Assembly: GCA_910574455.1 (NCBI GenBank)
Contig: CAJSYZ010000003.1
Span: forward strand, 4,897,250-4,961,249
Reading direction: 5' to 3'
DNA from: Trichaptum fuscoviolaceum
Lineage: Eukaryota; Basidiomycota; Agaricomycetes; Hymenochaetales; Trichaptaceae
DNA length: 64,000 bases
The position numbers and the translations under genes were made by a program. The notes beneath the pieces were generated by a model. It was not told the DNA's origin. It ran no database searches and saw only the letters and a list, made by a program, of their open reading frames with translations. The stretch's first letter is position 1, and every line of letters starts with the position of its first letter. Positions 183 to 48,495 of the stretch are shown piece after piece.

Positions 183-858
183 ATGCCCTCGAACGCTGCC
201 TCTGCTTCATCTGTCTCTTCAACCTCTTCGTCAGAAGATTGGGAGAAACTGCTACGACAGCATGAGGAGTATTATATCACAAGCGGCGATGTTGTCTTCC
301 GCGTGCGCAGTGGTTTGCTGCATACTTTGACACAGGAAACTCACTCAGACGTCTTCACAGGTTGAGACTACACTATTTCGCGTTCATCGGTCCTTTTTCC
401 TCCGAAACTCGCCGTGCGACATGTTCTCATTGCCTACCGCTCCCGAATCTGGGGCGAATGTGGAGGGTACTTCAGACGAGCATCCCATTTTCTTGCCGCA
501 AGTAACAATCAAAGAGTTCACTCAGTTTCTCTGGGTATTCTACAATCTGTATGTCAGCTACTTCATTTTGTCCTTCTCATTGCTGAAAGTGTGCAGAAAA
601 TCCTTTGAAAACAAGACAAGTGCCGAGAGGTGGAAGACATTTCGGCTCGCTCACATGTCGCAATGTGACGCGATACGAGAACGTGCATTTCACAGGCTTG
701 ATTGTCTACCCATCTCTCTCGTAGGGCGTGCTGTCCTGACTACATTGCACGATGCCAGTGCAGAATTGCTTGAAAAGGCGCTCGTGCAACTTAGCGCACG
801 ATCGCAACCATTGACTATCGATCAAGGCCGCCAACTAGCCATTGAGTTTACTGTATAG
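183..858 (+). CDS. BTB/POZ domain protein, C-terminus cut by a stop (left copy)
   Basis: Three exons: 183-302, 361-548 and 597-858, giving 189 aa. The introns are 58 and 48 nt; the second is open in frame. The spliced product reads GDVVFRVETTLFRVHRSFF, then DMFSLPT and FTQFLWVFYN. This is the pattern of basidiomycete BTB/POZ proteins (a disc domain followed by an FLWVFYN block and a helical tail). Such domains mediate dimerisation and can bind cullin-3, but no partner is visible here. The reading frame stops at TAG (856-858). The mirror copy at 48.1-48.5 kb has CAG at this codon and runs on for about 40 residues, so this copy appears truncated by a C-to-T change. The N-terminal start at 183 is the first ATG in frame with the BTB core. 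Confidence 0.7.
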
Positions 859-1188
859 GTGGTGGAGCTACGCGAACGTATCATTAAGGACTGCAGTCCA
901 CAACACGAAGCTCTTGATAATCAGTGTACATGAGGCTGGAGTGTAGCTAAACGTCCAGGACATGAGGACCATATTTGGTACTGTTTGTACCCCGATGCGC
1001 GAAACGTGACGCGTCGCAGTGGCCAAACACGACCAAGCGCGTCTGGTTGTTGTGCATTTCATTTATAAACCCTCCTCACCTCTCCCGCTCCTCCATCACA
1101 TCTTGCCCTTGTACCTCGACCATCTCATATACATACCTCGTGCGATAAACACCCCTCTGTCTTATACATATACCGTCTGACTTCTTCA
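859..1188 (+). promoter_or_regulatory. Upstream region with TATA-like box at 1062-1069
   Basis: Intergenic stretch before the gene starting at 1189. TTTATAAA at 1062-1069 lies about 120 nt before the ATG and is followed by a CT-rich strand. The mirrored copy keeps the same box at the same distance (47732-47739 against ATG 47611), which supports function. An ACGCGTCGC motif lies further upstream in both copies. Confidence 0.5.
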
Positions 1189-4165
1189 ATGATGTTGGAC
1201 ACTCACCCAATCCTCATGCTTACGAGCATCTTAACGCACGCGCAGCCGTGCAACGACCCTACTACAATGCGAATCCTTCAGGAGCTAGCTAGGAAGCCAG
1301 AGGTCGATTTCTGGACTCTCTTGGACACCTGTGAGGTCCCTCTACTCTCTCCGACATTGGCTGCTCTCCAAACCCAGTGTTCTCTCTTCGATAAACCTGC
1401 TCGCCGTGTGGCATCGACTCTTACCTGTCTCAAGGGTGACATCGTACCTCCCGACAATAGTTCGACCCTTCTTAGTTGTCCTCTCCTCGACAATGACTTC
1501 AGCTCTTCATATCTTGGTGGCTCAAATAACTTTGTGGCACATCAGACCAGTGGCACTCTGTCTGGCTTCGACACTCTCCTCCCGGTTTTCTTGTTCTGTC
1601 TTCTTGCGTACTCGTTCAGGCCTTCGACTGGTAAGCTCCATGCCATGAAGGAAGGAGCTCTCACAGCTGCGAAGAAGGTGGCTATGGTGGCATACGACAT
1701 GGTCTTTGTTCTCTTCATGTGGTTTACACTCTTCGTAAGTGGCATTTATCTAGACGTTAGACTCGTACCTAATGCGATCTCAACAAGGTGGTTGACCTGG
1801 CTTCGGTTACACTCGGTTCTGGTACCCTGGATTCTCGGATTGTATTCTCGGCGACTGTGCAGTTTGAAGGACAAGAACTGATCGTTCTCGTCCTCGGGCT
1901 GCCCTTCAACAGACTCGACTTCAGCTTCAAGACGGCTAGAAGACTTCAAATATTAAGCATCATCAATCGGACTCGACACATTCTCTTATACATAGGACAC
2001 ACAGCATCACGTCAATTCAAAATGAACGGCATGGAGGCGATGTTACCCAGCGAACAGGTAAGTTTCCTTGTCATCGTGTAAGCTTCTGCCACTCACTGTG
2101 CACAGATCTATCAGGCTCAGTGGCTCATAGACGCCTTAACCCTGATGCCTATCGACGATTATCTGTTTGCGCTTGTTCATGGTAACTTGGCCGATGTTTC
2201 ATACTGTCCTGTGACTGCGAATGCGACACTCTCTGTCGATCCCTCTGCTATTGCTTTACCTGAAGTCTCTGCTGATGAAGAACTTGCTCTTTCTGAAGTC
2301 TCGTCGCCAACGTTCCTTGAAGAGGAGCCGACGATATCAACTATCCGATATACCTTGAACCAAACTGTAGATCCTGTAACCGATACCCCAGTCAACCCGA
2401 GTGACGACAACCATCGTGCCTCTCTGACCAGATCTATGCCCTCGACTGCCTGTGCTGAGAAACTAGAGTACAGCGTCGACCCTTGCAACATACCTTTGCC
2501 TGAAGATGGAGATAGCGATTTGACGCCTCTGTCAGTCGCTGTAACACCAAGTATGCCTTTTGTAGGACCTTTATCTACCGAAGACGATGGAGTGGACCCG
2601 CTCTCTGTGCTGGTTCACTCTGTCCCTGAACTCGAGAACACGGCTGCGGCAATACAACCTGCGTTGTCGCTTGCCATTAGAGAACTAGGACCTCTGACCG
2701 TGGATGCAATGACTATCTGTACTATAGCTGATCCTCCGTCGGGGCCTGAAGAAGCGGATACACTGAGATGCTCAGACCTTGACATCACTTTTGCGGACGC
2801 TCCTGTCAGTTTCAATGCCTCTCAGAATGCGTTAGACTTAGAACGCAAGATAGTGGCCCCGTCTGACAGTCACTCTCACTCCGAACTTGACCTCTCGGAC
2901 CTTTGCTTACCTGGCCAGCCCTCATCGGTCTCACAGATCAAGAAACCGAGTCGCCCTGCTCGCATTCGAAGCCTGCTGGGTGTAGCTGTTGGCGGCATTA
3001 AGAAGCAGAACACCTCATTACGAAAGCTACCTGACCCGTCGGAAACTTCACTGTTATCCGACACAAGTACCCTCGTCGACATTGAGGTACTCATACCGGA
3101 AGACGTAAAGAAGGGCTTCCTGGATAAGATCGTTGACAAAGCAAGTGCGGTTGGCGACAGAGTAAAGAAGAGGGCCATTCGTCAGGAGGACGACGCTACT
3201 CTTCCTAAGAACGCCTATGGCGAGAACAAGCATCGGGACTCAGTTACAATTGGTAAGACGATTCACCTCTTGTAGAAGCTACGTATACTTACGATGCAAT
3301 AGATGACGACTCCAGTTCACCCGCTACAAAAACGAGAGACTTTCTGGACAAGACCGCCGACAAAGCAACCGCGGTCGGTGGCAAGTTCAAGAAGAAGGCC
3401 ATTTCTCAAGAAGGATGCTCCTCAACGTCTTCGGACGCTACTCATGTATTAGATGCTTCGGACTTAGACACGGACGGTAAGGCAATTTATCCTGGGGAGA
3501 AATATTTAAATCTAACGACAAAACAGACGTTGTTTACAACCATGACCCATTCTCAGCACCATGGGCAAGGAAGAAGAGGACAGCAATGAGTACTAACTGG
3601 AATTACGCACGACACGGTACTCGGATCGAAGAACATAATTCGAGTGACGAAGAAGTGGTATGTTTTCAATTATTCTTCGTGATATGCTGCGTGCTCACTA
3701 GTCTTTCCGTCTTGTAGCGCGCCAGCGTAGTGCCTCCCCACGTGGAATCCGGTGGGCCTGATACTCCACTGAACGGACTATTGAACACATCCTCTGCTCT
3801 TGATTCCCGGTCGACATGCCCTTCTGAAAGCTCTCTGTTGTCTCGACTCTCTGACGATTGTACTCTCGTGGACGCCGAAGGTGCCTTGACTCTACCCCAT
3901 AAGGATGCGAACGAGAGGAGTTTACTCGACAGGATGTCCGGTACGGTCAAGAAGGTCGGTGGCAAACTGAGGAAAAGATCGAAGAGGAAGCACCCAGCTC
4001 AGGAAATGGGATCGATACCAGCTGCGAAAGTGAAGACACTACTGCCAGTGAGCTCGGAAGCGACTGGTAAGTCTTGCTTGTACGCGTTAGCATATAATCT
4101 AAAGCTGACTAGATCCTGCAGTATCGACAAACCCGAACGATGATCGCTCAGTGCAATTCAATTAG
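1189..4165 (+). CDS. Large membrane-anchored, Ser-rich protein of unknown function (left copy)
   Basis: Not recognised. Seven exons: 1189-1734, 1788-2057, 2106-3252, 3303-3476, 3527-3657, 3718-4066 and 4122-4165, giving 886 aa. Every junction keeps phase and matches the mirror copy exon for exon. Residues about 127-144 and 167-182 are hydrophobic and likely membrane segments; exon 2 adds weaker hydrophobic stretches. From about residue 300 the protein is Ser/Pro/Asp-rich and probably disordered. It carries repeated basic motifs of the type LDK..DKA.AVG...KK: KGFLDKIVDKASAVGDRVKK, DFLDKTADKATAVGGKFKKK and SLLDRMSGTVKKVGGKLRKR. A Ser-rich SLLS...LVD block precedes the first and third. The copy in the right arm is also open, so both may be expressed. 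Confidence 0.75.
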
Positions 4166-4640
4166 ATGCCCTCGGGCTCTAAGAAGGCAGCGTAGAAGAA
4201 GCTGCTCGACCCGAACTCTATCACTGTCAATGACTCTGAGGGCAACCAACTGGGGATCGATCGCAACTGGCGTCGGAAGTCAGGACTTTGGGATGGTGCA
4301 TTCACAAAAGCCTGAGCGCTCGGCTTTTTGTGAGTGCAACTAACCAAGGGCTGAAGCTTCCTTCCCAGTGTCCCGCAGCCTTTTTCGGAGGTCAGACTAC
4401 GACTCCGAGAAGCAAGGGGGCTGTTCATCAACGCTCACTGCAAAAGGGCATGCGTCGGTCGATGAACCCGCATCTCGAGGCCACCGCTCGAGTACAGACA
4501 GAAACCCCAGTCCGTTCACGCCAGAAATTCTTTGTTCTACACCTACAAAAGGCTACCGTGCCGCATGTACCAGAACTCGTCGAGTCCGTCCTGGCGACCA
4601 CATTCGTATGAGTTATCCGGACGCCGGATATTATCCACAC
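4166..4640 (+). other. Coding-like 3' flank after the stop, probable decayed exons
   Basis: Directly after the TAG (4163-4165) the same frame reads MPSGSKKAA, a TAG, then KKLLDPNSITVNDSEGNQL, ending with a TGA near 4310. Further on, a plausible intron (GTGAGT from about 4331, CTAAC branch site, CCCAG near 4370) is followed by a Ser-rich open stretch (SRSLFRRSDYDSEKQG). The mirror copy at 44.33-44.69 kb conserves this sequence. It may be a decayed C-terminal part of the gene, a readthrough extension, or a 3' UTR. Confidence 0.35.
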
Positions 4641-5230
4641 AAGCTATGTCTTGCTTTTCTCCTTTCTTTCCTTATCTCTGTTTCGCGTTTCTCGTCTCTC
4701 TAATTTCTTTCTTTATCTTCAAGTCGTTGTCTCTAGTTTTTCGTGTCTTTCATGTCTCCTTATTTCATTATCAGATTCATCGCATCCGATCTTGTCTCAT
4801 AATTTGGCTTCATCTTCTTTCTTTGACCATTGGTCCATATACCCTTCATTGTCTCCATTCCTTCTTGTTTCCTATCGTTTTTTTGCCTCCATTACCTACG
4901 CTTCTCTTCCGAATTGCCCATATCATTAACCCCCGCAACTATCCCTATCTCTATGACTTTCATTTCACTCATTTCTTTACACCCGCGCATCCTATTTCTG
5001 TTGATGGCCTCACCCTCCACGCTATTCCCTTCTTTCAACTACGTATTTTACACATTTCTTATTTACCATACTTGGACCAAAGAACACTTCCTAGTTTATA
5101 GCCCATGTTCACATGTTTATTGTTCTACGCTTCCTTCACCTCCGAATCATATGTCTATCCACATTTCACTCATTTCTTTACTTGTATGCTTCCTATCTCT
5201 AGTAGCTATTCCCCTTATTCCTTTCTAGAT
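4640..5230. repeat. Pyrimidine-rich strand tract, low complexity
   Basis: The plus strand is strongly biased to C and T with scattered TTTC/CTTT runs and degenerate internal repeats (for example ACTCATTTCTTTAC at two sites). All three plus frames stay open for long stretches because stop codons need purines, so these ORFs are not counted as genes. A diverged copy lies on the minus strand at about 43.37-44.24 kb. Confidence 0.6.
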
Positions 5231-5927
5231 ATTCACACATCTATCGTATAGCCCACTTCCTATTTCATTATCAGTATTTACACGTACATTTTGTCTCCTA
5301 ATGTATTGAGTACTATAAATATAATGTGTCGAGATCGAATAACAAAATAGAGCTGAACAGTTGTGAACGGGAGGAGTGGCATATCCTGAAGAAATTTCTT
5401 TTTCCACTGCCAGTGAACAAGAAGTCATCACCTAGATACTTTATTTAGTACGGCAAGTAGGGGCAAGTCCTGAAGTCCCTTAGACGGTGCAAATCTGCCA
5501 GACTGCCATTGATGGGTTAGCAAAACACCGGCATCCCTAAACAACGCCTTCGTAACTTCCCCCTAGTTTATATAATCCTCCTGCCCATGATCAAGTCCTC
5601 GGCAATGTTGTATATCCAATGCATTTGACCGTATCTTTTTCTCTTCAGATCGTGAGGCTAGCCCCTCGAATGATTTGACGTCTAAGCATTCAAATCTACT
5701 TGATCGTACTTGAAGGCGCCGAAGAGTACTGTGTCCCGATCGGCACACAGCATTATTGCACGTGCTATATCGAACTTTGGTGCTGCAGCAGTCATTGAAT
5801 GAAGCATGACAAGCCGCAACTCCGGCCTATCGATAGGTTCAATACTTTTGCTGGTAATCTGGTTTAGAAAGAGGTTGGTACGTTAACTATATACTAGTAG
5901 AATCATGCGATAAGGGAGAAAAATGAT
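5231..5927. other. Intergenic, conserved 3' flank of F-box gene B
   Basis: No complete gene seen. Minus-strand sequence at about 5680-5810 is well conserved at 43085-43215 in the other arm and contains a coding-like block (KFDIARAIMLCADRD here, KFEIIRAIMLCSDRD there). The upstream frame differs between copies by small indels. It could be a lost last exon or conserved 3' UTR. Confidence 0.3.
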
Positions 5928-7457
5928 TTACTTACTAATTTTGTCTCCATATAACTCATCTGCTTTGCCGAAAAGCGCATTAGTTGCAGCACTGGATATC
6001 TCCAACCGTCTGAAACTATCCCATTTGCCTTGCTCTTTCAATGCATTCTTTAAATCCCGAAGCATATTCAAATGACTTTCGCCACAGTTTGACAATTGCA
6101 GCGTGTGCAGTGCCGGTACAAATCCATCGTCTCCGTCGGCGTCAATAATGTAGGGAGCGAGATTCGGCGAGTCCACAGACAAAGAGCGTAAACCCCGTAA
6201 CTTTCCGAAGGGTATAAAAAATTGTGTGTATTCTCTGTCTGTCATTGTCAACGTCAGACTTTCCACGGAAGAATAGTCCTCGTGGGGAAAGAGATCTTCC
6301 AACGTCCGAAAGTCTTCGTCGTCAGACACAGGAGCTAACATGTCGATCTTCAACTTGCGGAGTTTGGGAGCTCGTAGTGCGACCATGAACGAACTAATTC
6401 CACGTGTATCGCTTTCCGGCGACCCGATAGATAAATGTTTCAGATTCGGCATCTCTATCAGTTGAGCTTGTTGACAGAGATGCACGCCACGCCCAATAAG
6501 TTCGAGGTCGAGTTCCTCCAAACCAGAAAACGCGGATAGGAGTTCTCGGAGACGGTCGCTTTTCGCCGCATTTCCTTCATAAATAAAAACGTCCCGTAAA
6601 CACATGGAAGAGAGTTTTGGGGCTTCGAATAATTTCGGGATTCTGTCAATATCCAAGGAACGGAGGTTTGGTACTTCCCAAGTGCTGTAGAAATGTGCAG
6701 TGTCATCTCCCCAATCTCCGGAACTAAAGGACGTCAGACAGAGCGAATGTAAAGAGGGAAGGCGTAGATTTGAGAGGAACGGAAAGATCCTTGTTGAATA
6801 AGTCGCTTTTCCAAAACACGCTTGAAAGTCTTCCCATCTCGTGGAATGAGGTACGACCGCTGCTACGAATGATAATGCGTTTTGAAATTCAGCATCCGTG
6901 TACAGATATAGACCAATTGATAAGCCAACGGTTTTGCTTCTCTGTAAGCATGCGCGTACGTATGGCATTTTATTATAAGAGCTGATATGGGACCATAGGC
7001 GGGGCGTATTGACAGCCACTCGTCTAAATTGCCGGCAAACAAGAGATAAATTGCCTTTTGCGTGATTCCCTTCCAAGTGCTCAAATATCAGAGAAAGTAT
7101 TTCGTCAGGAGTCGAAGCCAAGCTCCTTCCGAGCTCGAAGGGAAGTATGTGTTTCTTGATATCCATGACTGTTTTCTCTAGAGAAGCCGAGAGACCTTCC
7201 AGTAAAAGCTTAGCACCTTCAAGGTCGCGCAGAGTTAACCGTGCCTCCGACACAGTCTTGGGACAATTCGACCAGTAATCAAGGTTCTTGAGACTAAATA
7301 AAGTTGAGCGTAACTCAGCGAGTACTCGAAAGGTAGCGTACCTATCAATGGTCCCATCTTCCCAGACTTTCTCGTATCCACCGTAAGTATCTCCATCACT
7401 GTTATTCAATGATTTCAAGGCGCTGATGAGCCGCGATACCGCTGCAATGTCAACCAT
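5928..7457 (-). CDS. F-box/LRR protein B (left copy)
   Basis: Two exons, 7457-7342 and 7293-5928, giving 493 aa. The 48-nt intron is open in frame, so an unspliced product of 509 aa is also possible. Order: N-terminal module (AAVSRLISALKSL, GGYEKVWEDGTIDR), a helical segment (LEGAKLLLEGLSASLEKTV), the F-box (LASTPDEILSLIFEH, then LSLVCRQFRRVAVNTPRLW), then about ten leucine-rich units such as LPSLHSLCLTSF and MPNLKHLSI. In the F-box family the box binds Skp1 within an SCF ubiquitin ligase and the repeats hold the substrate; both roles are inferred here. The mirror copy is at 41359-42933. The start is the ATG before the conserved module. Confidence 0.8.
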   Translation of the reverse strand: MVDIAAVSRLISALKSLNNSDGDTYGGYEKVWEDGTIDRYATFRVLAELRSTLFSLKNLDYWSNCPKTVSEARLTLRDLEGAKLLLEGLSASLEKTVMDIKKHILPFELGRSLASTPDEILSLIFEHLEGNHAKGNLSLVCRQFRRVAVNTPRLWSHISSYNKMPYVRACLQRSKTVGLSIGLYLYTDAEFQNALSFVAAVVPHSTRWEDFQACFGKATYSTRIFPFLSNLRLPSLHSLCLTSFSSGDWGDDTAHFYSTWEVPNLRSLDIDRIPKLFEAPKLSSMCLRDVFIYEGNAAKSDRLRELLSAFSGLEELDLELIGRGVHLCQQAQLIEMPNLKHLSIGSPESDTRGISSFMVALRAPKLRKLKIDMLAPVSDDEDFRTLEDLFPHEDYSSVESLTLTMTDREYTQFFIPFGKLRGLRSLSVDSPNLAPYIIDADGDDGFVPALHTLQLSNCGESHLNMLRDLKNALKEQGKWDSFRRLEISSAATNALFGKADELYGDKISK

Positions 7458-7559
7458 GGACTACTCAGATACCCTACAAAGTTGGTTCAGCCTCTTTCGA
7501 CAGCGGATGTGCAGTATTACTCACCGGTAATATACGCTATAGTTTCCAGTGAGCTAGCG

Positions 7560-7765
7560 CAGGATCAGAAGTTGACCTTATAATTGCTTCAAGTTCTGCC
7601 TTGCTCTGGAAAGAGTAGTCCTGGTGGGAGTCGCAGTGAAAACTTTGAAAGCAGGATCTTACTAAAAAGGAAGTAGCTTCGGAGTCCGAGTCGGGATGAC
7701 TCGGACTTAGGACTTGACTCAGTGAGCCGGTTAAGTACTACATCTGCAGAGTTAAACTCAGCCAA
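7560..7765. repeat. Shared upstream block of F-box gene B, end of inverted-repeat block 1
   Basis: Sequence matching 41035-41280 in inverted orientation, including TCCGAGTCGGGATGACTCGG-like palindromic stretches and a CTTTCCAGAGCA box. Homology between the arms stops near 7765 and 41035. It has some look of a solo LTR remnant, but no clean TG..CA ends or target duplication were found. Confidence 0.4.
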
Positions 7766-7827
7766 GGGAAGACCATCCTTAGACTCGCCGAGTCGCAAGC
7801 CAGTCGTTATTGTACATGTAGAGTCTA

Positions 7828-8246
7828 AATTTCCCCGTCGGTCTCCATCGCTTGCTCGATTACCATTGCCAGTAGCTCGTCAGGTACTAGTAGCGAAGAC
7901 AGCCTTTTAACCTGTGCAACCGGACGTACATTCGGATTGAGCTCGATTTTTGCTGCATCGATGGATGTTGCAAGGCCCGAAAGAACGAGTCTGATGTTTT
8001 CCAGTGCGCACAAGGTTGACCTTGCTTCCTTAACATTTCCCGACACGATGGTCCAAATTCCAGGGCTCTGCGTTTGCTGAGAGTTGCAGAAAACAAACAC
8101 CGAAACGTAAATCGCGCAGACATACCCATCGAGCGCCCTTTCTCCTATAGATGTTCACGTACAGTGTCATCGTCCTTCAACTTCAGCAAAGCAACGATTA
8201 ATTGAGATACAGCCAATTGGTCAGCTCTGATGCTTTCTTCGTCCAT
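7828..8246 (-). pseudogene. F-box gene 5' fragment
   Basis: The minus strand from ATG 8246 reads MDEESIRADQLAVSQLIVAL, then LKDDDTVREHL and an in-frame TAG, a plausible intron, then SPGIWTIVSGNVKEARSTL and LLVPDELLAMVIEQAMETDG before it stops. This matches the first 100 or so residues of the gene at 16531-18125. The rest of the F-box and all leucine-rich repeats are missing, and the break lies beside the end of inverted-repeat block 1. Confidence 0.7.
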
Positions 8247-8249
8247 CTT

Positions 8250-8712
8250 GCAAAGGGGGAACGTCTGGCAAATGTTTGATGAGGGAGTACGAAGTTGGAA
8301 GTCGAGTGGGAACTTAGCAGCACTGTGAGGCACCCACGCGCCTTTGTTCTTCAACTCATTCTACTTGAGCCATCAAATTCTTCTATCAAGCCTCAGGCCC
8401 GGAGTCAACGAGAAGGACATGAAGTCCTAAAGAAGTAGGGTGGTCCACCTTCATCTCAGAGGCTAGAAGGCTCATTCGCATTTCGTGATGGCTTTAACTA
8501 GAGGTCAACTTCGAGCAGCTACATCCTGAGCGCGTGGAGGCAGACAGTGAACTGGCATGTAAACTTGCAGAAAGTCGAGGTCGACAAAGTGAGAGTTTAC
8601 TGGGTTGGATGTAGCTCAACGTTTTGCAGAAGTGCGTTGTTTGTTGTATTCTCATCTGACATACCTGACCATTTACCCTCCCTCATTCTCTTCATATCGA
8701 CTGTGACAATGC
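8250..8712. other. Intergenic, no gene seen
   Basis: Short frames only. It likely holds the upstream region of the F-box fragment and, towards 8712, an intron 3' end (CACCTAG) leading into the coiled-coil reading frame that follows. Confidence 0.4.
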
Positions 8713-11325
8713 GTTCACCTAGACGCTAACGTTGCGAAGGAAGAGGCGAAGGAGAACTCAGTCTCCGAACGAAATGAGATTAGAAGATTGTCACTTCGAA
8801 TTCATTCCTTGGAGAAGGAGAAAAGGGCAGCAGAACAGCGTGCCAAGCGCAACCGGACGCTTTCGGCATTACACTCGACAGAGAGAAAGCGGCTTCAGAC
8901 AACACTTGAGGCACGCCAGTGCTCAGCGACAGCATCTCGTCGACGAATGGAAGCACAGCTAGCGAGAGTGACGAAGAGGGCGAACGACTTGGACGCGGGG
9001 GGAAGGGCGTTGCGGGAGAAACTCAGGGAGCAGGTGAAGTTGTCTTTCAAGTTGAGGTTTCAGCAGAATTTAGACAGGAATCGGAGTACGGGAGTACGGT
9101 GGGGAGCAATCAACCGATGACCCTCCCCGCGAAGACCTTAGAAATCGCAAAGACCGAAGACGTACAAAGACAACACATTCGGAGCAACCGGAGCAACTGT
9201 CAACTTATGGTCAGTATTGTTCTCTCACTGAGTTTCTGCTTGTTAGTTGATGTTGAATTGGTGTAGCTCCGACGCCTGACACGATCAGTCTGTGCGAGTC
9301 ACCTCTGCTGTCTATGTTCGAGACGAGAGGCGACTTGGGTGACATTCTAGACAGGACACACGCTACTCTTGGCGGAGACGAGTCCTTAGTTTGCCTTCCC
9401 CACGCTAGCGACGATCCGCTCCTTGGACCGGCTCTGGTCCCGACGTTCGAGAGGCACTGCAAGATGCGACGGGCCCTGTTCCCTTGGGCTTGCTCTCGGA
9501 CACAAACTCGGACGTGGATCTGCCTTCTCTACCTGAGATGCCGACTTGCACCACGGTGTCGACGATCTTCTACGTAGTCGATATGGGGAGGAGCTGTGCA
9601 ACGATACCTGACACTTCGACATAGTCTGCAGCGCCAAATCTGCTGAGCCCTCCTTCGCAGTCACTGCCAGTTGCGGTCGTTAGAGAGTATGGCCCCCACC
9701 TGCCTGACCGTTTGCCGCCTCCAGATGACGCAGAACCTTCAGGACTTCCTGATCTTCCGGAGATGCCATCTTTCAGCTATACTCAGAGTTTCACGACCCT
9801 GGAGATCATACCGGCATGGTCACCAGGAGAAGTCGGTGACCCCGAAGCTCAGCTGAGCGTGGCGGAGGCATCTGAATCTGTGGTTCTCTTATCTGGTTCT
9901 GATCTGCCTGATCTCCCGTCTTTCCCTTCTGGATCTGTCTCATGGTCGAGATCGCTTTCTCGACATGACGCGGTGCCCTCTGAATGTGCTGAAGTACAAG
10001 AAAATGGCACTTCTGAGGCGTCTGAATCTATTCTGTCTGATCTACCGTCCCCTTCTGGTTTTGAGATACGGTTAAAGTCGCTTTCGGGTTCTGGATTGGC
10101 TGCGACTGGTATAGCTCGATCTACCGACTCTCTGATCCTGACGCGTGTGCGAGCGGCTCCAGAGCAAGCACTGTCACCGCCTTCGATTGTATGCTCGGAA
10201 TCTTTGGCCTCGGACTTGGGCGACGTCGTGACCGAAGCATGTTCTGGTCCGATCATCTATGACATCCCTGATGCGTCGAACACATCTATGTCTGCTCTTC
10301 CAGCTAGTTCTCCCCGCCAGTTGCTTGCGGATCCAGCTGTGGCGACTCGAGCGAAGAAGGAGGCGATGCTGCGCGCTCGGAGGCGAGAGCAGCAGCATTG
10401 TCTATCCCCTACGCCGGCGTCACGCGCTGTGCCACTGGAAAATAACGCAGAGGAGAGTGTACTCATAGCTCGGCCAGCTGTCAGTGTTGACCATTCGGAA
10501 GCAAAGTCGTGTGTGCCAAGCGAATCGCGGTCACAAGCGGATTCCGGGCTGGGCCTCATGGAATTGTTCGACTCAACGTCTAGTGTTTCGACCTCGACTC
10601 ACCGGAAGGACTCTGATACCTGTGGTCTCGATCAGATGTCTCTAGCTGAATCAAGACGCTATGGGAAGCAGGAGGAAGTTGAAGCACCTTCGAAGTCGAC
10701 TGGATCTTTGGTTCTGACTTTGTCCACTGGGCCAGTACCTGTCCTTTCAGAGATGGACGCATTCCTACCGGAAGACCTAGTCCTGCCATCGGAGTCTGTC
10801 TAACCGATGGCGTTAGAGGAGTCGGGCTCAGGTCTGGTATTGGTTCCTTGTCATCATGTTGAAGGTGAGTCTTATGATTTATTGCTCAGTATTCAGGGGT
10901 CTGACATCAATGCAGTCTCACCGGAAGCTGTTCCCGTCCCACAGACAAGTGCCACCTCTCCTGAGTTGTCATGTCTGGAAGACGAGGCTTCTGTTGCACC
11001 GTCCTTGACCAAGTCGCCCGCGCCGCTGAGATCTGTCTGCGAGAATATGCCTTCAAGCAGTAGGGGAAGTTCGGACACCCTCGAGCAGACACCGTCCTTG
11101 TTCTCGGCGACATCGGTACAGACCCCAGAAGCGGCACTCGCGTCTGTGCTTATGGTTCATATGACGGCGAAAAGAGGTGGATCGGGAAGCAATGATGATG
11201 AGATGGATTGCGAGGGCCGTATACAAGATGCTCGAACGCTCAGGTTCAGAAAGCGGTCGTTAGAGGCTTTGCAGAAAAAACGTCTTGTCAGCCATTGCTT
11301 AGGTTCTCGTATACCAGGTCAGTAG
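8713..11325 (+). pseudogene. Coiled-coil and Ser-rich gene, apparently decaying
   Basis: Not recognised. From the splice-like CCTAG at about 8712 the frame reads a charged coiled coil (ERNEIRRLSLRIHSLEKEKR ... RKRLQTTLEARQ), then shifts frame. Later parts are Ser/Pro/Asp-rich: LCESPLLSMFETRGDLGDIL, then SGLPDLPEMPSFSYTQS, in one open frame at 9712-10803. A TAA at 10801-10803 interrupts the frame, which resumes at 10807. A likely 51-nt intron opens with GTGAGT near 10865, and the C-terminus ends KKRLVSHCLGSRIPGQ at 11325. Frame changes near 9450 and a stop near 9625 cannot all be explained by clean introns, so I call it a decaying gene, but a spliced functional form is not excluded. Its last exon recurs at 53.24-53.55 kb. 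Confidence 0.5.
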
Positions 11326-11652
11326 CGTAGTGACTGTAGTGTTGTGCAGGATAGTTAATTTATTACATTAATTTAAGTAGTATAATCAATGGAATATTAA
11401 TTTATGTTAATACGAAGGAGCAATCTCAATTTCGTGCGTAATCTGAGAATGCGTAATCTTGTAGTGGCACGACTTCATCAATATGGGAGAATGCGAAGGG
11501 GTTCCGACTAGTCATTAAACATATGTAAGTATACTGAACATGCACCGTTTAAATTGACGTGATCATCATCAAATAAGTAGCTTGTCAAAGTCGCTTTGTA
11601 TGTTCCGGATTCCAGTCCGTTCCTCTGACCTCCGTCACGTTCTAGCTATGTA
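11326..11652. other. AT-rich intergenic, shared 3' flank
   Basis: The first 100 nt or so match, inverted, the flank at 53.1-53.24 kb (TAGTGACTG..., AGGATAGTTAATTTATTA). No gene seen. Confidence 0.5.
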
Positions 11653-13285
11653 CTAATAGTTGTACAAGTCGCTCCAGTATGACTCTTCATTGTCGTACTC
11701 GCTGTGACTTGACTCTTCCTCGTCAGACTCGCTGTGACTTGATTCTTCCTCGTCAATAACGTTGTCAACTAAATCTGCATCGTCAAACTCGCTGCTAGAT
11801 TGCTTTTCGTCGTCATATTCGAAGCAATTTATGATCCCCACGTCATCCAACTTTATCCCATATTTCTTGATTAGTGAATCGAAGTCGTAAAAAAACTTGG
11901 GAACCAAATGATTGCAGTTGTCAAATACGATAGTACGAAGCCTTCCACAAGGAACAACGTCAGGTATGAGTCCATCATAGGCGCGCAAATAAATGTCTTC
12001 AAACGTCAAGGTAAGGTCCTGTAGACTGTCCGGGAGTTCCTCGAGGATGTCGTGGAGAATGAAAACGAAATGTTCATCGTTTCCCTCCCCGCATCCAACA
12101 TGGAACAGTGCCTTTTTCAGGTCTGGATATCTTGACTTCATTCCGCAAAGGAGCGCCCAGAAGCATTCAACCGCCGCTGTGTCGTCGTGGATTTGTCCCG
12201 AGAAACATTGAGCTCGGAAAGATGTGATGTTAGGAAACAGTAGGGTCCGAAATAGGACTTCTACGACGCCAGTTTCCACGTCGTCCGAGATAAGCGCAAA
12301 ATGCTTGAGAGCAGATAGTGAAGTTTCGAGGGGCGTGTCCCCATCACCGCCATCCTCAACGGACCTCAGAGTGATAGTCAACATTTCGAGGGAAGGGCAT
12401 GCAGCCAGGCAAAGTGCAAGTCGGTCGATAGATAGGTAGTTGCTGAACTGGAGAGAGCATTCCGACATAACAGATAACCGGATCCCAAATGGCATAACTT
12501 GGACACATTTGAGTGTTTTCAGGGATGGTAGAGACCAGCTGCTGTCGAGTAGCATAAGGCTGTCGTTTGAACCTGTTATGGACATCTTTTCGATACCAGC
12601 AAGTCTCGTACATGGCACGCTTGCTTGGAAACGCATTAAGTCAAACTCGGTGAATCTTCGAAGAGCGAGGTCGGACCACCTTTCGCAGTCACGGAGCATC
12701 GTTTGGTTTGGGCCAGGAAAGGAGATGAATGAGGCTTGGAGTCCAAGACCACGGCTCCGTCTAGCGATAGCATCTATGGTGTACGAAGACAGCTTAGGGC
12801 TCATTGTTTGTCGAGCCCATAGGCATGGAGAGGATAGAGCTATCTGCCTACATTTCTTAGAAATTAGCAACAGATGCCGAAGATCGCGTAGGTTGGGTTC
12901 GGAAAGGTCGAAAATGAGAACGATAAGCTCGTCGGGGAGGTCGGTGATGGTTCGTTTAGGCATGCAGGTACGCAATTTCGAAACACGCTCATTGAAGGAG
13001 GAAGCAAGAAAGGAAACAATTTCGAGCAAATGTTCTTCCAGCCTCAGTATCGATTTCGCTAGGGATATTCTGTCGCATATGTTATTATCGGCTGGATCAC
13101 TATGTATTACGGTAAGAAAACATTTTGTTAGGAGATAGATATTAAGCACACCGTTCAGCACCTTCATCACACCACATCTCCCTAGGACTTATCCTGCCAT
13201 CGTTCTCCAGCACTTTCGTCAGCATCAGCTGAAGCTTTCGAATAGCGTCGAGTGACGCGTCAAATGAGTTTTCTGCGTTGTCCAT
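11653..13285 (-). CDS. Divergent F-box/LRR protein with acidic repeat tail
   Basis: Exons 13285-13152 and 13099-11653 (52-nt intron), giving 526 aa. The start MDNAENSFDASLDAIRKLQL replaces the usual N-terminal module. The F-box region reads ITDLPDELIVLIFDL, then LRHLLLISKKCRQIALSSPC. Leucine-rich units follow (LPSLKTLKCVQV, CPSLEMLTITL, FPNITSF). The last 50 residues are acidic with an imperfect repeat EEESSHSESDEEESSHSEYD. It is the most divergent clan member in the window. A related first exon survives alone at 24.27-24.37 kb. An SCF substrate-receptor role is inferred from the domain order only. Confidence 0.7.
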
Positions 13286-16340: not shown

Positions 16341-16530
16341 GTGAGAGGCAGACACGGGGATTTTGTTAAGCTAGACATCCACATGTCTTTCACCCGTGTC
16401 CCGTGGGCTTTCTAACAAAATCCCGGTAAGCATACATACAACCGTCGCATTCCCGGAAACATATATGCTCGTGATCACCATCCATGGCAAATGAGTAAGT
16501 GGGATTACATCCACTCCGCTGCATTCATCC

Positions 16531-24366: not shown

Positions 24367-24369
24367 GCT

Positions 24370-36301: not shown

Positions 36302-37656
36302 TCAGACGTCCAATTCTTTTTTTTTTTGTATCAGTGAAACCTACATTTCTCCACAATCTCGTCGAGATATGTAGCCGGCGGGAATGCAGCCGAATGAGAC
36401 GTTTATGAAGGAACTGTAAGAAAGACGCGGATGTTAAGCAGGCATGCTGAAGATAAAGAACAAGTAGTACTTTACTCAAGGAAGAACGGGCTGGCATTCA
36501 AGAGGACTGACTGAAACCGAGGGCTGAATGCGCACAGCTCGCCACCGCTGGAGGTGCTTTCGACGAAGTTCACGACATTCAGCCCACACACACCTGCAGC
36601 TGACTCGCTACCAGAGTAGGGGACACGCGTAGTGTGAATTTTGGAGGGTAAGTCGAGGTTAAAGCAAGCATGGAAGGACGATGAGAGTGATAAAGGACCG
36701 CGTAGCGGGTCGGTCGCGATGTGCCTGGACAGCATGCTGATATTGCGCTATCGTGATGTATGAAGGGAAGGAATGTGATGCTGCTTGCTACCTGACCTGC
36801 GGATGACGTTAACGGCAGGTCGCTCGAAAAACAGCACTCCCATGAACATTGCGTAAGTATGCTTCGTACGCTGAGCGCTATTGAACGAAACTTGTGACGA
36901 CCACCTCAGGCAATGAATGAGCAGCCTTTTCTGGAAAATGAGGCCCATAGACAAGGCGAGTGGTGGAGGGAGATGGATGGCTATAGGTTTGGTTTGGGAA
37001 GAGTAGTCAATGAGGAGGGTGGTTGGGAGTTTTGAAGACCGACCCACTTTGTAAAATTTCTTCATTCATGGATTGGGCTGCAGCGGGCTTCAGACACGGA
37101 TGGTGAGGAGTTATAAAGGAATGCCATCGCATTTCTGGGGTCGGAAGCATGTCTCGTGGGCAAGGGCCGTCCACTTCGTCTGACTGGCCTCGCGGTGATC
37201 GAGAAACAAGACGGAGACAGTGCGCTTGTCTCTGGGCGGCAGAAAGATAGATACGAATGTCAGACGATTATGTTCGTGTGTTGATACGAGACGGGTACGA
37301 GTACCATAGTACCATCTGGCCACTTTCGTCCTCAACGACGTTCGGTAGCCCACCCCGCTGGGAGCTTGTTGATACATCCGCACTCGAAGAACAGCATTGC
37401 CTTCATTCGATCTAAAAGAGAACGATGTGAGTAAGACACTATGTAGGAGTAAGTTGAAGTTTGTGTTGACGCACAAGTTTTGCAAAAGTCAACCAGCGAC
37501 CACTGGCAGCCCAGGCGCATCTCTTCATGTTCTTCCTCCATTCCGCCACTTGCCACTTCCTGCTACAACTTCCCAGAACAGCCAGTACCAATCCACCATC
37601 CACCAGTTTCGCGTCATACGAAGGAGTGACCAATGTATGGGTAGACTGCTCGACGT
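35757..37656 (+). repeat. Direct repeat DR1 (with DR2 at 48.50-50.34 kb)
   Basis: Sequence from CTAAACTACGGCAGTTGGAG (35762) through TGGGTAGACTGCTCGAC (37656) matches 48496-50339 in the same orientation. It includes the 3' part of the F-box gene, its flank and a transporter relic. The two copies bracket the right arm of the inverted duplication. Confidence 0.7.
36472..37656 (-). pseudogene. Relic of transporter 5' region (copy in DR1)
   Basis: The minus strand near 37370-37290 reads GLPNVVEDESGQMVL in one frame, matching WLPDVVEDDDGQLVL of the relic at 21.0 kb and, more remotely, transporter exon 1. Upstream sequence (37.4-37.6 kb) matches the 38 kb relic. Downstream sequence (36.75-37.06 kb) matches 21.25-21.5 kb. 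Frames are broken. Confidence 0.5.
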
Positions 37657-43370: not shown

Positions 43371-44240
43371 TGGAAAAAGAAATTTCTAAAACTTGAAGCA
43401 CAGGAGCCAACATGTCGTCGTGTTACGATATGCCCCTCTTCCCGCTCATAATTATTTAGCTTTATGTATTTATTCGATCTCGACACATTATACTTATAGT
43501 ACTTAATAAATACAATACAATATGTACATGTTAATACTGGCAATAGAATAGGAAGTGTTCTATGTTCTGCGTAATGTAAAGGGAAGTTGCTAAACGATAG
43601 ATGTGTAGAATATCTAGGAATGAGGGGAATAATTACTGGAGTTAGGAAGCATGCGAGTAAAGGAACAGAAAAGAGTAAATGTAGTAGGAAAGAACAGTAA
43701 GAATAGAAAGACATATGATTCGGAACTGAAAGAAGCGTAGAACAAGCAACATGTTAACATGGGTGATAAACTAGGAAGTGTTCTGTGGTCTGTGCAACGC
43801 AATAGGACGTATGGCAGATAAGAAATGCGTAAAATATGTAGTAGAAAGAAGGGAATAAATAGGGTGGAAGGTGAGGCCGTTGATAGAGTTAGGCTGCTCA
43901 GGTGCAAAGGATAAAAGATAGGAATAGATGTAGAGGAAAGCGGAATGGGTAAATCGGAAGTGAAGCGTAGCGCTAGAGGTAGATAACGATAGGAAACAAG
44001 AAGGAACGGAGGCGGTAAAGGGCATATGGGCCTATGATCAAGAAAAGAATGAAGATGAAGCCAGAATACGAGACAAAATCGGATGCGAAGAAACTGATAA
44101 TGAGAAAGGAGACATGAAAGACACGAGAAATTAGAGACAAGGAAAGATGACAGGAAGGGAAGAGAGACATTGGAGAGATGAAAGACGCGAAACAGAGATA
44201 AGGAAAGAAAGGAGAAAACAAGACATAGCTTGTGAGGATA
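43371..44240. repeat. Purine-rich plus strand tract (pyrimidine-rich minus strand)
   Basis: Mirror of 4640-5230. GAAAG/GGAAG-rich on the plus strand. Long minus-strand frames here are a composition artefact. Confidence 0.6.
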
Positions 44241-44329
44241 ATAACCGACGACCAGAAAGCTCATACGACCGTGGTCGCCAGGACGGACTCGACGGATTCC
44301 GGTGCGTGCGGCTCAGAAGCCTTTTATAG

Positions 44330-44691
44330 ATGAAGAATAATGAAGTTCTGGCTCGACAGGACGTACTCGGGCGGTGACCTTGAGATGCGGGTTAATTGAC
44401 TGACGGGTACCCTTCCGCAGTGAGCGTCGGTGAAGGACGCCCTTGCTTCTCGGTGTCGTGTTCTGACCACCGAAGAAGGCTGCGGGAGACTGGGAAGGAA
44501 GCTTCAGCCCTTGGTTTGTTGCACTCACAAAAGCCGAGCGCTCAGGCTTTTGTGAATACACCATCCCAAAGGCCTGACTTCCGACGCCAGTTGCGATCGA
44601 TCCCCAGCTGGTTGCCCTCAGAGTCGTTGACAGTGGTAGAGTTCGGGTCGAGCAGCTTCTTCTTCGCCGCCTTCTTAGTGCCCGAGGGTAT
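44330..44691 (-). other. Coding-like 3' flank of the membrane gene (right copy)
   Basis: After the TAG at 44694-44692 the same frame stays open for 47 codons (IPSGTKKAAKKKLLDPNSTT, VNDSEGNQLG, DRNWRRKSGLWDGVFTKA) before TGA. In the left copy the same frame has one more stop. Confidence 0.35.
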
Positions 44692-47611
44692 CTAATTGGA
44701 TTGCACTGAGGGATCATCCTTTGGGGTTGTCGATACTGCAGGATCCAGTCAGCTTTAGATTATATGCTAACGCGCACAAGCAAAGACTTACCAGTCGCTT
44801 CCGAGCTCACTGGCAGTGAGATACTGACTGGTATCGACCCCATTTCCTTAGCTGGGCGCTTCTTCGATCTTTTCTTCAGTTTGCCACCGACTTTCTTGAC
44901 CGTACCGGACATCCTACTGAGTAAGCTCCGCTCGGTCGCATCCTTGTGGGGTAGAGGCAAGGCACCTTCGGTGTCCACGAGAGTACAATTGTCAGAGAGT
45001 CGAGACCACAGAGAGCTTTCAGAGGGGCATGTCGACCGGGAATCAAGAGCAGAGGATGTGTGCAATAGTCCATTCGGTGGAATATTATCTGGCCCACCGG
45101 AGTCCACGTGGGGAAGCACTACGCTGGCGCGCTACAAGACGGAAAGACTAGTGAGCACGCAGCAGATCATGAAGGATGATTGAAAACATACCACTTCTTC
45201 GTCACTCAAATTATGTTCTTCGATCCGAGTACCGTATCGTGCGTTCTTCCAATTAGTACTCATTGCTGTCCTCTTCTTCCTTGCCCATGGTGTTGAGAAT
45301 GGGTCATGGTTGTAAACAACGTCTGTTATGCCGTTAGATTTAAATATTTCTCTTCAGGATTGGTTGCCTTACCGTCCGTGTCTAAGTCCGAAGCATCTAA
45401 TACACGAGTAGCGTCCAAGGACATTGCGGTGCATCCTTCTTGAGAAATGGCCTTCTTTAAATTGCCACCGACCGCAGTTGCTTTGTCGGCGGTCTTGTCC
45501 AGAAGGACCTTCGTTTCTGTCGCGGGTGAATTGGAGTCGACATCTATTACATCGTAAGTATACGTAGCTTCTAAAAGAGGTGAATCGTCTTACCATTTGT
45601 GACTGAGTCCCGAGACGCGTTCTCGCTATAGGCGTTCCCAGGAAGAGTAGTTCTGTCGCCAACCGCACTTGCTTTGTCGACGACCTTGTCCAATGGGCCC
45701 TTCGTTGCGTATTCCGGTACGACTCCCTCAATGTCGACGAGGGTACTTGTGTCGGACAACAGTGAAGTTTCCGACGGGTTAGGTAGCTTTCGTAACGAGG
45801 TGTTCTGCTTCTTGAGACCGCCAACAGCTACACCCAGCAGGCTTCGAATGCGAGCAGGGCGACTGGGCTTCTTGAACTGGGAGACCGATGAGGGCTGGCC
45901 AGGTAAGCAAAGGTCCGAGAGATCGAGTTTGGAGTGAGAGTGACTGTCTGACGGGGCCACTATCTTGTGTACTAGGTCTAACGCATTCTCAGAGGCATCG
46001 TCACCCACAGGAGCTTCTGCATCGAGGTCTGAGCATCTCAGCGTATCTGCTTCTTCCGCGTCCAATGGATTAGCTATAGTACAAATAGTCATTGCATCCA
46101 CGGTCAGAGGTCCTAGTTCTTCGTTGGCAGGCGATAATGCGGGACGTATTACCGCGGCCGTGATCTTGAGTTCAGAGACGGAGCGAACCAGCATAGAGGG
46201 CGGGTCCAATCCGTCGTCTTCGGTAGATAAAGGTCCTACGAAAGGCATACTTGGAGTTACAACGACTGACAGAGGCGTCAAATCGCTATCTCCATCTTCA
46301 GGCAAAGGTATGTTGCAAGGGTCGACTCTGTCCTCTAGTTTCTCAGCACAGGCAGTCGAAGGCATAGATATGGTCAAAGAGACACGATGGTTGTCGTCAC
46401 TCGGGCTGACTGGGGTATCGGTTACAGGATCTACAGTTCGGTTCAAGGCATATTGAATAGTTGTTTTCGGCGGCTCCTCTTCCAGGAACGTTGGCGACGA
46501 GACTTCAGAAAGAGCAAGTTCTTCATCAGCAGAGACTTCAGGTAAAGCAATAGCAGAGGAATCGACAGAGAGTGTCGCATTCGCAGTCACAGGACAGTAT
46601 GAAACATCGGCCAAGTTACCATGAACAAGCGCAAACAGATAATCGTCGATAGGCATCAAGGTTAAGGCGTCTATGAGCCACTGAGCCTGATAGATCTGTG
46701 CACGGTGTGAGTGGCAGATGCGTACACGATGACATGGAAGCTTACCTGTTCGCTGGGTAACGTCACCTCCATGCCGTTCATTTTGAATTGACGTGATGCT
46801 GTGTGTCCTATGTGTATGAGAATGTGTCGAGTCCGATTGATGATGCTTGATATTTGAAGTCTTCTAGCCGTCTTGAAGCTGAAGTCAAGTCTGTTGAAGG
46901 GCAGCCCGAGGACGAGAACGACCGGTTCTTGTCCTTCAAACTGCACAGTCGCCGAGAATACAATCCCAGAATACAGGGTACCAGAACCGAGTGAAACCGA
47001 AGCCAGGTCAACCACCTTGTTGAGATCGCATTAGGTACGAGTCTAACGTCTAGATAAATGCCACTTACGAAGAGTGTAAACCACATGAAGAGAATGAAGA
47101 CCATGTCGTATGCCACCTTAGCCACCTTCTTCGCCGCCGTGAGAGCTCCTTCCATCATAGAATAGAGCTTGCCGGAGGAAGGCCTGAACGAGTACGCAAG
47201 AAGACAGAACAAGAGAACCGGGAGGAGAGTGCCAAAGTACGAGATGCCACTGGCATGATGTGCCACAGAGACATTTGAGCCACCAAGATATGAAGAGCTG
47301 AAGTCATTGTCGAGGAGAGGACAACTAAGAAAAGCCGAGTTATTGTCGGGAGGTACGATGTCACCCATGAGGCAGGTGAGAGTCGATGCCACACGGCGAG
47401 CAGGCTTGTCGAAGAGAGAACACTGGGTTTGGAGAGCAGCCAATGTCGGAGAGAGTAGAGGGACCTCACAGGTATCCAAGAGAGTCCAGAAATCGACCTC
47501 TGGCTTCCTAGCTAGCTCCTGAAGGATTCGCATTGTAGTAGGGTCGTTGCACGGCTGCGCGTGCGTTAAGATGCTCGTAAGCATGAGGATTGGGTGAGTG
47601 TCCAACATCAT
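44692..47611 (-). CDS. Large membrane-anchored, Ser-rich protein of unknown function (right copy)
   Basis: Seven exons: 47611-47069, 47015-46746, 46695-45594, 45543-45373, 45322-45192, 45131-44792 and 44735-44692, giving 866 aa, all in phase and matching the left copy. Hydrophobic segments (FGTLLPVLLFCLLAYSF, VAYDMVFILFMWFTLF) and repeated LDK..DKA.AVG motifs are kept (GPLDKVVDKASAVGDR, LLDKTADKATAVGGNLKK, SLLSRMSGTVKKVGGKLKKR). The main differences are small in-frame indels in exons 3, 4 and 6. One removes the basic KKRAIRQED end of the first repeat. Preservation of the frame in both copies after many substitutions argues that both are under selection. Confidence 0.75.
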
Positions 47612-48099
47612 TGAAGAAGTCAGACTATATATGTATATAACAGAGGGGTGTATATCGCACGAGGTATGTGTATGAGATGGTCGAGGTACGAGGGCAAGAT
47701 GTGATAGTGGAGCGGGACAGGTGAGGAGGTTTTATAAATGAAATTCGCAACAACCAGACGCGCTTGGTCGTGTTTGGCCACTGCGACGCGTCGCGCTTAA
47801 TCACGGTCGTGAGTACAAACAGTACCAAATATGATCCTCATTCTCGACCATATAAGAAACCTGGTCTGATTCGGGACTGATGTTTTGGCCTATTCGTTGT
47901 CCATCACTGCTGAAGGCAGTGTATGAATGGTCAGTAATATGACAAGAATAGTAAGCAAATGAGTGTCCAACTTTAATACTGTACGTCATCGACAGGATTT
48001 TTTTGGTGAGTAAATATAGTGAACTAACGAATACCTGTACCAGTGCTTGATATCAACAAGCACCAATACAGGCGAAGAATGCGAACGCAAAGACTAACA
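47612..48099 (-). promoter_or_regulatory. Upstream region with TATA-like box at 47732-47739
   Basis: Mirror of the region before 1189: TTTATAAA 121 nt upstream of the ATG and a GACGCGTCGCG motif near 47780. The rest is unmatched or diverged intergenic DNA. Confidence 0.45.
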
Positions 48100-48495
48100 T
48101 CACTCGGTCCCCCACTCATTCTCCTCCAAGCTATCCCCAAAACTCATGCACATATATCTCAGAAGGCAAGGCCAAACCATAGAGATGCACATGGACTGAT
48201 CATCATTAGCTTCCTGTTGTAGATTGTGGCGGTTAATGATGCGCTCGCGTAGCTCTGTCACCTGTACAGTAAGCTCGATGCCTAGCTGGCGGCTATCATC
48301 GATAGTCAACGGTTGCGATCGTGCGCTAAGCTGCGCAAGCTCCCTTTCACGCAATTTTGCACTGGCATCGTACCGGGTAGTTAGGACAACACGCTCTACG
48401 AGAGAGATAGAAAGGCGATCGAGCTTTCGTAACATAATTTCTCGTATTTCGTCACATTGCCACATGTGAACGAGCCGAAGGACAGTCTTCCACCT
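48100..48495 (-). pseudogene. BTB gene 3' half, cut at the duplication junction
   Basis: The minus strand reads RWKTVLRLVHMWQCDEIRE and continues to SFGDSLEENEWGTE, open to the stop at 48100. It matches the last exon of the left BTB gene but begins at the junction, so the BTB fold itself (exons 1 and 2) is missing. Its C-terminus shows the intact form of the tail that the left copy has lost to a stop codon. Confidence 0.7.

What the first reader, a model, noticed from the sequence alone, without database searches (positions are those of the whole stretch)
621..48495. Two-block inverted segmental duplication around a 16-kb centre
Gene order, orientation, exon structure and non-coding tracts of 0.6-7.8 and 18.1-21.1 kb return in mirror order at 48.5-41.0 and 40.7-37.8 kb. 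Both copies of the seven-exon membrane gene and of F-box genes B and D remain open. Duplication of whole blocks followed by parallel retention is unusual in an accessory region full of decay.
Basis: seen in the sequence. Interest (0 to 1): 0.75.

Follow-up and report, generated by a model that had tools for sequence, protein, structure and literature searches.

The report
Mirror-image gene duplication in fungal cluster
A stretch of a fungal chromosome carries an old mirror-image copy of a group of genes; it is real and the copies still look functional, but it is one of several such copies in a fast-evolving gene cluster, so the kind of event is known.

Summary
Window 627-7753 and 18358-21098 return inverted at 48496-41040 and 40469-37757 at 79-86% identity. 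The genome is a 59-Mb, 12-contig fungal assembly; the window lies 0.58 Mb from one end of C3.

It is not an isolated two-block event. The seven-exon gene has five open copies in 182 kb of C3. Each lies on the strand opposite to the F-box neighbours found. A1 shares a longer outer flank, including an F-box gene, with a third copy, A3, than with A2.

The right arm is probably the derived copy. It sits between two direct repeats (35760-37654 and 48494-50339), and both joins look sharp. I read this as break-induced copying of the left arm with template switches (inferred), followed by patchy gene conversion and weak purifying selection.

Public proteins about 98% identical match B1 and B2 separately, which argues against a haplotype misjoin.

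At least 34 fragments of the same gene lie elsewhere in the genome. Those inspected look like Helitron2-type captures.

Verdict: a real, old inverted duplication in a birth-and-death F-box cluster.

The parts
962..5385 (+). Left-arm unit A1: seven-exon orphan gene, start codon at 1189, stop near 4166 (886 aa), with flanks
43427..47841 (-). Right-arm unit A2: the same gene, exons 47611-47069, 47015-46746, 46695-45594, 45543-45373, 45322-45192, 45131-44792, 44735-44692 (866 aa)
5931..7460 (-). F-box gene B1, open frame 510 aa
   Evidence: 98.0% match to public protein P0005
41341..42930 (+). F-box gene B2, open frame 530 aa
   Evidence: 97.9% match to P0004
18781..20313 (-). F-box gene D1, open frame 511 aa
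38521..40056 (+). F-box gene D2, open frame 512 aa
   Evidence: 97.7% match to P0001 over 355 aa; LRR F-box fold hits
35760..37654 (+). Direct repeat X1: C-terminal part and 3' flank of F-box gene C2; its right end is the join to the right arm
48494..50339 (+). Direct repeat X2: truncated C2 copy (fragment 48481-48991) and flank; its left end is the join to A2's 5' flank
35252..36298 (+). F-box gene C2 (partial, open 349 aa), the gene whose 3' part is copied in X2
7754..18357 (.). Left-arm-only segment: F-box genes at 11656-13188, 14041-15573 and 16534-17985 (-), plus a dispersed repeat
46009..47010 (-). Part of A2 (exon 2 to mid exon 3) that recurs, whole or in part, in 34 scored places outside the cluster; fetched examples have Helitron2-like ends

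Best explanation
This is an old inverted segmental duplication inside a large F-box/LRR gene array, kept by ordinary birth-and-death evolution.

Shown: the right arm (about 37655-48493) is an inverted, internally shortened counterpart of the left arm (about 21180 down to 627), and it sits between two direct copies of X. Inferred: the right arm is the younger copy. A broken end in the 3' flank of F-box gene C2 (X1) switched onto the left arm, where D1 lies beside a diverged X-like flank. It copied D, B and A leftwards, then switched back into the C2 gene. That second switch duplicated X and left the truncated C2 fragment at 48481-48991.

The three extra F-box genes of the left arm were either skipped, lost later from the right, or gained later on the left; I cannot tell which.

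Shown afterwards: a patchwork consistent with gene conversion among the five copies of the seven-exon gene, and weak purifying selection. Inferred functions: the F-box proteins are substrate receptors of SCF ubiquitin ligases; the seven-exon protein is a lineage-restricted, probably membrane-anchored protein of unknown role.
For: Mirror pairs and direct repeats. X occurs only at these two places at length; the 3 other matches of 5 are short (77-253 bases) and 70-77% identical. Joins: X1 and X2 are 96% identical over the last 95 aligned bases up to w37654, where they part and left-arm similarity begins (74% over the first 132 columns); X1-like sequence starts at 48494 directly after A2's flank. 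Left arm ancestral on its outer side: homology between A1 and A3 runs past w627 without a break, to w316. Diverged X-like pieces beside D1 (21264-21492 and 21027-21103). Five open copies. Orientation opposite to the F-box neighbours found in 5 of 5. Patchwork ancestry: with flanks, 103 adjacent informative sites share a partition against 38.5 +/- 5.6 in shuffles, 0 of 5000 as high; within the gene alone 47 against 16.0 +/- 3.6, 0 of 5000. Selection: dN/dS 0.55 (A1-A2), 0.63 (B), 0.46 (D); at most 1 of 1000 neutral simulations per pair as conserved. F-box and LRR.
Against: Identities differ between parts of the arms: X 87-89%, D inner flank 93%, D outer flank 75%, B flanks 77-83%, A 3' flank 81%, A promoter 90%. 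One event of one age predicts similar values; conversion must be invoked for the rest. The neighbouring A1-A3 pair was not checked for bracketing repeats. Overlap at the second join is about 0-3 bases and was judged by eye, so microhomology is not shown; the first join was also placed by eye, as BLAST similarity to the left arm starts only at 37757. In exons 2-3, A2 groups with A5, not A1 (89/97). The fold of D2 is only moderate (pLDDT 73.6), with TM-scores of 0.21-0.27 to the plant F-box hits.
Confidence: 0.6

Rival explanations
1. Stepwise array evolution: the mirrored order arose through several separate tandem duplications, inversions and losses in the F-box array, not by one copying event; X1 and X2 are an independent tandem duplication.
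For: Identities of the parts differ. The left arm has three extra F-box genes and the right arm has F-box fragments at 40777-41035. The array also holds other fragments, such as a B-like one with stops at C3:4891616-4892927.
Against: The ends of X1 and X2 coincide with both ends of the right arm, which independent events would not predict. B1-B2 and D1-D2 are nearest relatives among the 11 window and neighbour F-box proteins in the tree.
Confidence: 0.27
2. Assembly artefact: two haplotypes or nuclei of a dikaryon wrongly joined in inverted order.
For: No reads were available, so physical linkage is untested here.
Against: 79-86% identity; five copies with different flanks; distinct public proteins 98.0% and 97.9% identical to B1 and B2, while B1 and B2 are 69% identical.
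Confidence: 0.03
3. Transposition: the right arm moved as one mobile element, with X1 and X2 as its terminal repeats.
For: The arm is bracketed by direct repeats, and Helitrons carry part of the same gene.
Against: X has no other full copy in the genome. A 12-base Helitron-end pattern with up to one mismatch hits the window once, at 51234, not at the joins. The D block has only one other long copy in the genome, D1's.
Confidence: 0.04
4. The second part of the seven-exon gene came from a Helitron (exon donation), rather than the Helitron having captured it from the gene.
For: The shared part begins 5 bases inside exon 2. The Helitron and cluster copies are each one side of the unrooted tree (100/100), so the tree does not give direction. 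Some Helitron copies have no stop over the part matched.
Against: Only the five cluster copies were found with all seven exons. Many Helitron copies have stops. Intron 2 appears kept in L020, judged from the collinear alignment and the frame that reads through it. The Helitron-end pattern was not found in the cluster genes of the window.
Confidence: 0.1

Closest known systems
'Flowers' of the human genome (PMC3388347: clusters of large repeats holding multigene families)
   Same: Several duplicated units in adjacent regions (mean about four per Flower), gene families, frequent gene conversion that covers coding genes, minimum identities down to 78% (abstract and Discussion read).
   Different: Flowers were defined for repeats over 50 kb in human DNA; here units are about 4-11 kb, in a fungus, and none of the cluster copies compared is near 100% identical.
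Replicative template-switch rearrangements (FoSTeS / MMBIR, PMC2621351)
   Different: Junction microhomology is not demonstrated here, the event is old, and the mechanism is inferred from anatomy only.
F-box/LRR proteins of SCF ubiquitin ligases (Pfam F-box-like PF12937; plant D3/MAX2, COI1)
   Same: F-box-like domain and LRR-type fold; the six best solved-structure hits are plant LRR F-box proteins.
   Different: About 12-13% sequence identity and low TM-scores; further hits are other LRR proteins (NLRPs and the like); Skp1 binding untested.
Helitron2 with asymmetric terminal inverted repeats (Fusarium, PMC5148889) and gene-carrying Helitrons of Pleurotus (PMC4289320)
   Same: Starts with TC, 13-base inverted repeat whose 3' copy lies about 30 bases from the end, insertion between A and T, tail-to-head copies in some loci, a Rep gene downstream in two elements.
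   Different: The captured host gene still exists as five full copies in one cluster; [quoted passage not shown]

Membership tests
Inverted segmental duplication | Long mirror copies including non-coding sequence, same gene order | tested here: met
Inverted segmental duplication | Both copies on one molecule, shown by reads | not testable with these tools
   No reads; indirect support from separate public proteins
Template-switch (MMBIR-type) rearrangement | Inverted copy bracketed by a direct duplication, sharp joins | tested here: met
   join positions read by eye on the alignments
Template-switch (MMBIR-type) rearrangement | Microhomology of a few bases at joins | tested here: inconclusive
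   About 0-3 bases at the second join, judged by eye on a diverged alignment
'Flower'-type multigene cluster | Several duplication units with gene conversion among them | tested here: met
   Five units; patchwork sites
'Flower'-type multigene cluster | Repeats over 50 kb | tested here: not met
   Units of about 4-11 kb; hence 'works like', not a member
F-box/LRR substrate receptor | F-box-like domain | tested here: met
   PF12937 over cut-off in B1 (35.3 against 24.3 bits); B2, D1 and D2 just below it (21.1, 23.8, 23.0)
F-box/LRR substrate receptor | LRR-like C-terminal fold | tested here: met
   Foldseek best hits are LRR F-box proteins, E 1.7e-6, but TM about 0.25
F-box/LRR substrate receptor | Binding to Skp1 and a substrate | not testable with these tools
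   Needs experiment
Helitron2 (dispersed fragments) | A/T insertion site, TC start, asymmetric inverted repeat | tested here: met
   Among 13 fetched loci, 4 of them near-identical: A before 4 of 4 intact 5' ends found, T after 11 of 11 3' ends found (one of these inside a tail-to-head pair); 60 genome sites of the 21-base start with up to one mismatch against 0 for the reversed pattern
Helitron2 (dispersed fragments) | Rep/helicase partner with the same ends | tested here: met
   2 of 27 Helitron Rep matches lie 3684 and 3685 bases downstream of such a start; the helicase part and the 3' ends of those elements were not checked

The most novel reading that the evidence does not exclude
The F-box array grows as a ladder of alternating mirror blocks: homologous F-box flanks repeatedly seed break-induced copying in inverted orientation, gene conversion through the inverted copies keeps an orphan seven-exon gene alive in five copies, and Helitron2 elements harvest and scatter fragments of that same gene. 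Such a self-reinforcing fungal counterpart of human 'Flowers' would make diversification of mushroom F-box receptors directly testable.
Probability: 0.25. Interest if true: 0.5.

Novelty: new member of a known kind. Interest (0 to 1): 0.3.

Why it matters
It gives a clear anatomy (inverted copy, bracketing direct repeat, truncated gene at the second join) for how a large fungal F-box family may grow. Of wider use is the link between an intact orphan gene family in one cluster and many Helitron-borne fragments of it.

Tried and rejected
- Haplotype misjoin: rejected as unlikely.
- A right arm moved as a transposon with X as its ends: X is not a dispersed repeat.
- Symmetry extending inwards into F-box genes C1 and C2: they share only 38% identity over the C-terminal part, so they are older paralogues.
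- Naming the seven-exon protein: no Pfam match up to E 0.1 for six open frames over its exons, three from each arm. No relative at E <= 0.001 among the 7993 or 7994 scored candidates for the whole protein or for a five-row exon-1 alignment. That search takes only candidates of similar length sharing short words, so a split or distant relative could be missed.
- 'Membrane' by hydropathy: two stretches in all five copies, but 133-156 of 200 shuffles reach the threshold, so the support is weak.
- Longest-shared-run test with flanks: one significant pair (A1-A4) rests on a flank where A2 and A5 do not align, so I repeated both tests inside the gene. Four of ten pairs then have P at or below 0.002; A1-A4 does not (0.061).
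- Naming the organism: not achieved. The only named relative was a weak Schizopora paradoxa match (26% identity); with the Plavaka transposase it suggests, by recall, a mushroom-forming basidiomycete.
- Paper searches: only the top 8 to 15 rows of 16 to 411 were seen; none of those titles describes this locus. Searches listed mostly plant F-box or unrelated papers.
Full report
WHAT WAS CHECKED. The window is C3:4897250-4961249 of a 59,093,390-base, 12-contig genome; C3 is 5,542,395 bases long. Self-BLAST confirms the mirror: 962-5385 with 47841-43427 (86.2%), 5664-7753 with 43223-41040 (79.0%), 18358-21098 with 40469-37757 (85.9%), and an outer piece 627-925 with 48496-48195 (79.1%) (ungapped pieces). 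These values far exceed chance (E = 0 for the three long pairs).

WHAT IS IN THE ARMS. The block-A gene has seven exons and codes for 866 aa in the right arm and 886 aa in the left. B and D are single-frame F-box genes of 510 and 530 aa, and 511 and 512 aa. Pfam F-box-like scores are over the cut-off in B1 and just below it in B2, D1 and D2. A 21-row fold of D2 (mean pLDDT 73.6) has six plant LRR F-box proteins as its best solved matches (best E 1.7e-6, TM-scores 0.21-0.27), followed by other LRR proteins. I take these genes as F-box/LRR genes.

THE SURROUNDINGS CHANGE THE PICTURE. The seven-exon gene has three further copies on C3, at 4762920-4766799, 4833408-4837231 and 4850208-4855026. All five are open over seven exons; one acceptor site (exon 2 of A4) looked shifted in the alignment. 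In 5 of 5 cases the gene lies on the strand opposite to the F-box genes found next to it. A protein search with D1 gave 84 matches in the genome; 13 of the best 14, D1 itself included, lie on C3 between 4.857 and 5.025 Mb. A1's outer side is shared with A3, not A2: 4893893-4902382 returns inverted at 4858641-4850208 in pieces of 71-88%, including an F-box gene pair E1/E3 (85.5%).

HOW THE RIGHT ARM GOT THERE. The right arm is bracketed by direct repeats X1 (35760-37654) and X2 (48494-50339), 83.7% by BLAST. X has no other full copy: 5 matches in the genome, of which 3 are short and 70-77% identical. X1 and X2 are 96% identical over the last 95 aligned bases before w37654 and then part; similarity to the left arm begins there, at first 74%. 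A2's 5' flank stops and X1-like sequence starts at 48494, inside gene C2. Both positions were read by eye. The left arm looks ancestral on its outer side, because A1 and A3 share sequence past the point (w627) where A2 stops. D1 also lies next to diverged X-like pieces (21027-21103 and 21264-21492). The simplest reading is a copying event that ran from X1 into the left arm in inverted orientation and switched back inside C2. Against a single clean event: identities of the parts range from 75% to 93%, and D is 96-100% identical over 38255-38854 while its far flank is 68-78%. I attribute this to later gene conversion.

CONVERSION AND SELECTION. Of 276 two-against-three sites among the five copies of the seven-exon gene and flanks, no partition dominates (57, 52, 46, 39, 24 and fewer), and neighbouring sites share a partition 103 times against 38.5 +/- 5.6 in 5000 shuffles, none as high. 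Inside the gene alone (125 sites; 27, 26, 13, 12, 12 and fewer) it is 47 against 16.0 +/- 3.6, again 0 of 5000. The longest shared run is unusual (P at or below 0.002) for 4 of 10 pairs inside the gene. Shuffles do not keep differences in rate along the gene, so this shows patchwork, not its cause. dN/dS is 0.55 for A1-A2, 0.63 for B1-B2, 0.46 for D1-D2 and 0.51 for E1-E3. In 1000 neutral simulations per pair (five pairs), 0 or 1 had as few amino-acid changes as seen, and 0 to 10 had no stop. Constraint is therefore real but weak. dS is lower for the seven-exon gene (0.13) than for B (0.28) and D (0.21), as conversion would give.

INDEPENDENT SUPPORT FOR TWO LOCI. Of 17 public proteins found with D2, P0005 is 98.0% identical to B1, P0004 97.9% to B2, P0001 97.7% to D2 (355 aa), P0003 97.5% to the gene at 14041-15573 and P0012 98.0% to that at 16534-17985. 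B1 and B2 are 69% identical. No such match to D1 was returned. These records are short contigs with the source label 'lgn' (I take this to be a read-archive assembly; recalled), so they show separate genes, not linkage.

HELITRONS. Part of the gene (46009-47010 and neighbours) recurs in 34 places outside the cluster, with 40 of 83 candidates scored; the protein search adds ten more. Thirteen loci were read: 12 of the 34 and one of the ten; four of these are over 99% identical to one another. Elements start with TCCCCGCCACGAAGCG and carry the inverse of that start about 30 bases from their end. A precedes 4 of 4 intact starts found and T follows 11 of 11 ends found. The 21-base start occurs 60 times in the genome with up to one mismatch, against 0 for the reversed pattern. 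Two of 27 Helitron Rep matches lie 3684 and 3685 bases downstream of such a start. The five cluster copies and the 13 Helitron rows are each one side of the tree (100/100). Many Helitron copies contain stops, some do not over the part matched. The likely direction is capture from the gene, though the tree is unrooted. These features fit Helitron2 as described for Fusarium (passages of PMC5148889).

COMPARISON WITH THE KNOWN. In behaviour the region resembles human 'Flowers': several units, gene families, conversion (abstract and Discussion of PMC3388347), but it fails their size definition. The joins resemble template-switch rearrangements (abstract and passages of PMC2621351). Large F-box families are known in mushrooms: 210 F-box genes in Flammulina filiformis, 80 of them developmentally expressed (passages of PMC7567395). 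I therefore file the finding as a new member of a known kind.

LIMITS. No reads or related strains could be compared. Only 60 kb near the window and about 21 kb of dispersed loci were fetched with the fetch from genomes; other loci came as short stretches around matches. The 4.77-4.83 Mb and 4.87-4.89 Mb parts of the array were seen only through matches.

Noticed in passing
8711-11389: A dispersed repeat inside the left-arm-only segment; two copies of about 2.7 kb lie at C3:5028371-5031049 and C3:4973913-4976609 (90-92%), and shorter pieces in many places; one piece is at 53171-53535.
   Followed up: partly
51227-51246: A lone, slightly changed Helitron start (TCCCCGACACGAAGCGTAGC, preceded by A) on the minus strand, 0.9 kb beyond X2; no clear partner end recognised in the window.
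   Followed up: partly
31323-32546: Ricin-type beta-trefoil lectin domain frame (PF00652, E 1.1e-14) in the GC-richer centre between the arms.
   Followed up: no
59511-60176: Plavaka transposase fragment (PF18759, E 9.8e-23).
   Followed up: no
33545-34825: A 1.28-kb stretch is 99% identical to C2:5725776-5727057, so a recent copy or mobile element.
   Followed up: no
50672-51070: A dispersed repeat of about 0.4 kb with an 89% palindrome at 50991-51055, shared with several other chromosomes.
   Followed up: no
L016-L019: Four stretches of about 4.4 kb toward contig ends (three within 0.28 Mb of the end of C3, one near the start of C2) are 99.5-99.9% identical, a recent duplication or transposition that includes the Helitron-borne gene fragment.
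   Followed up: partly
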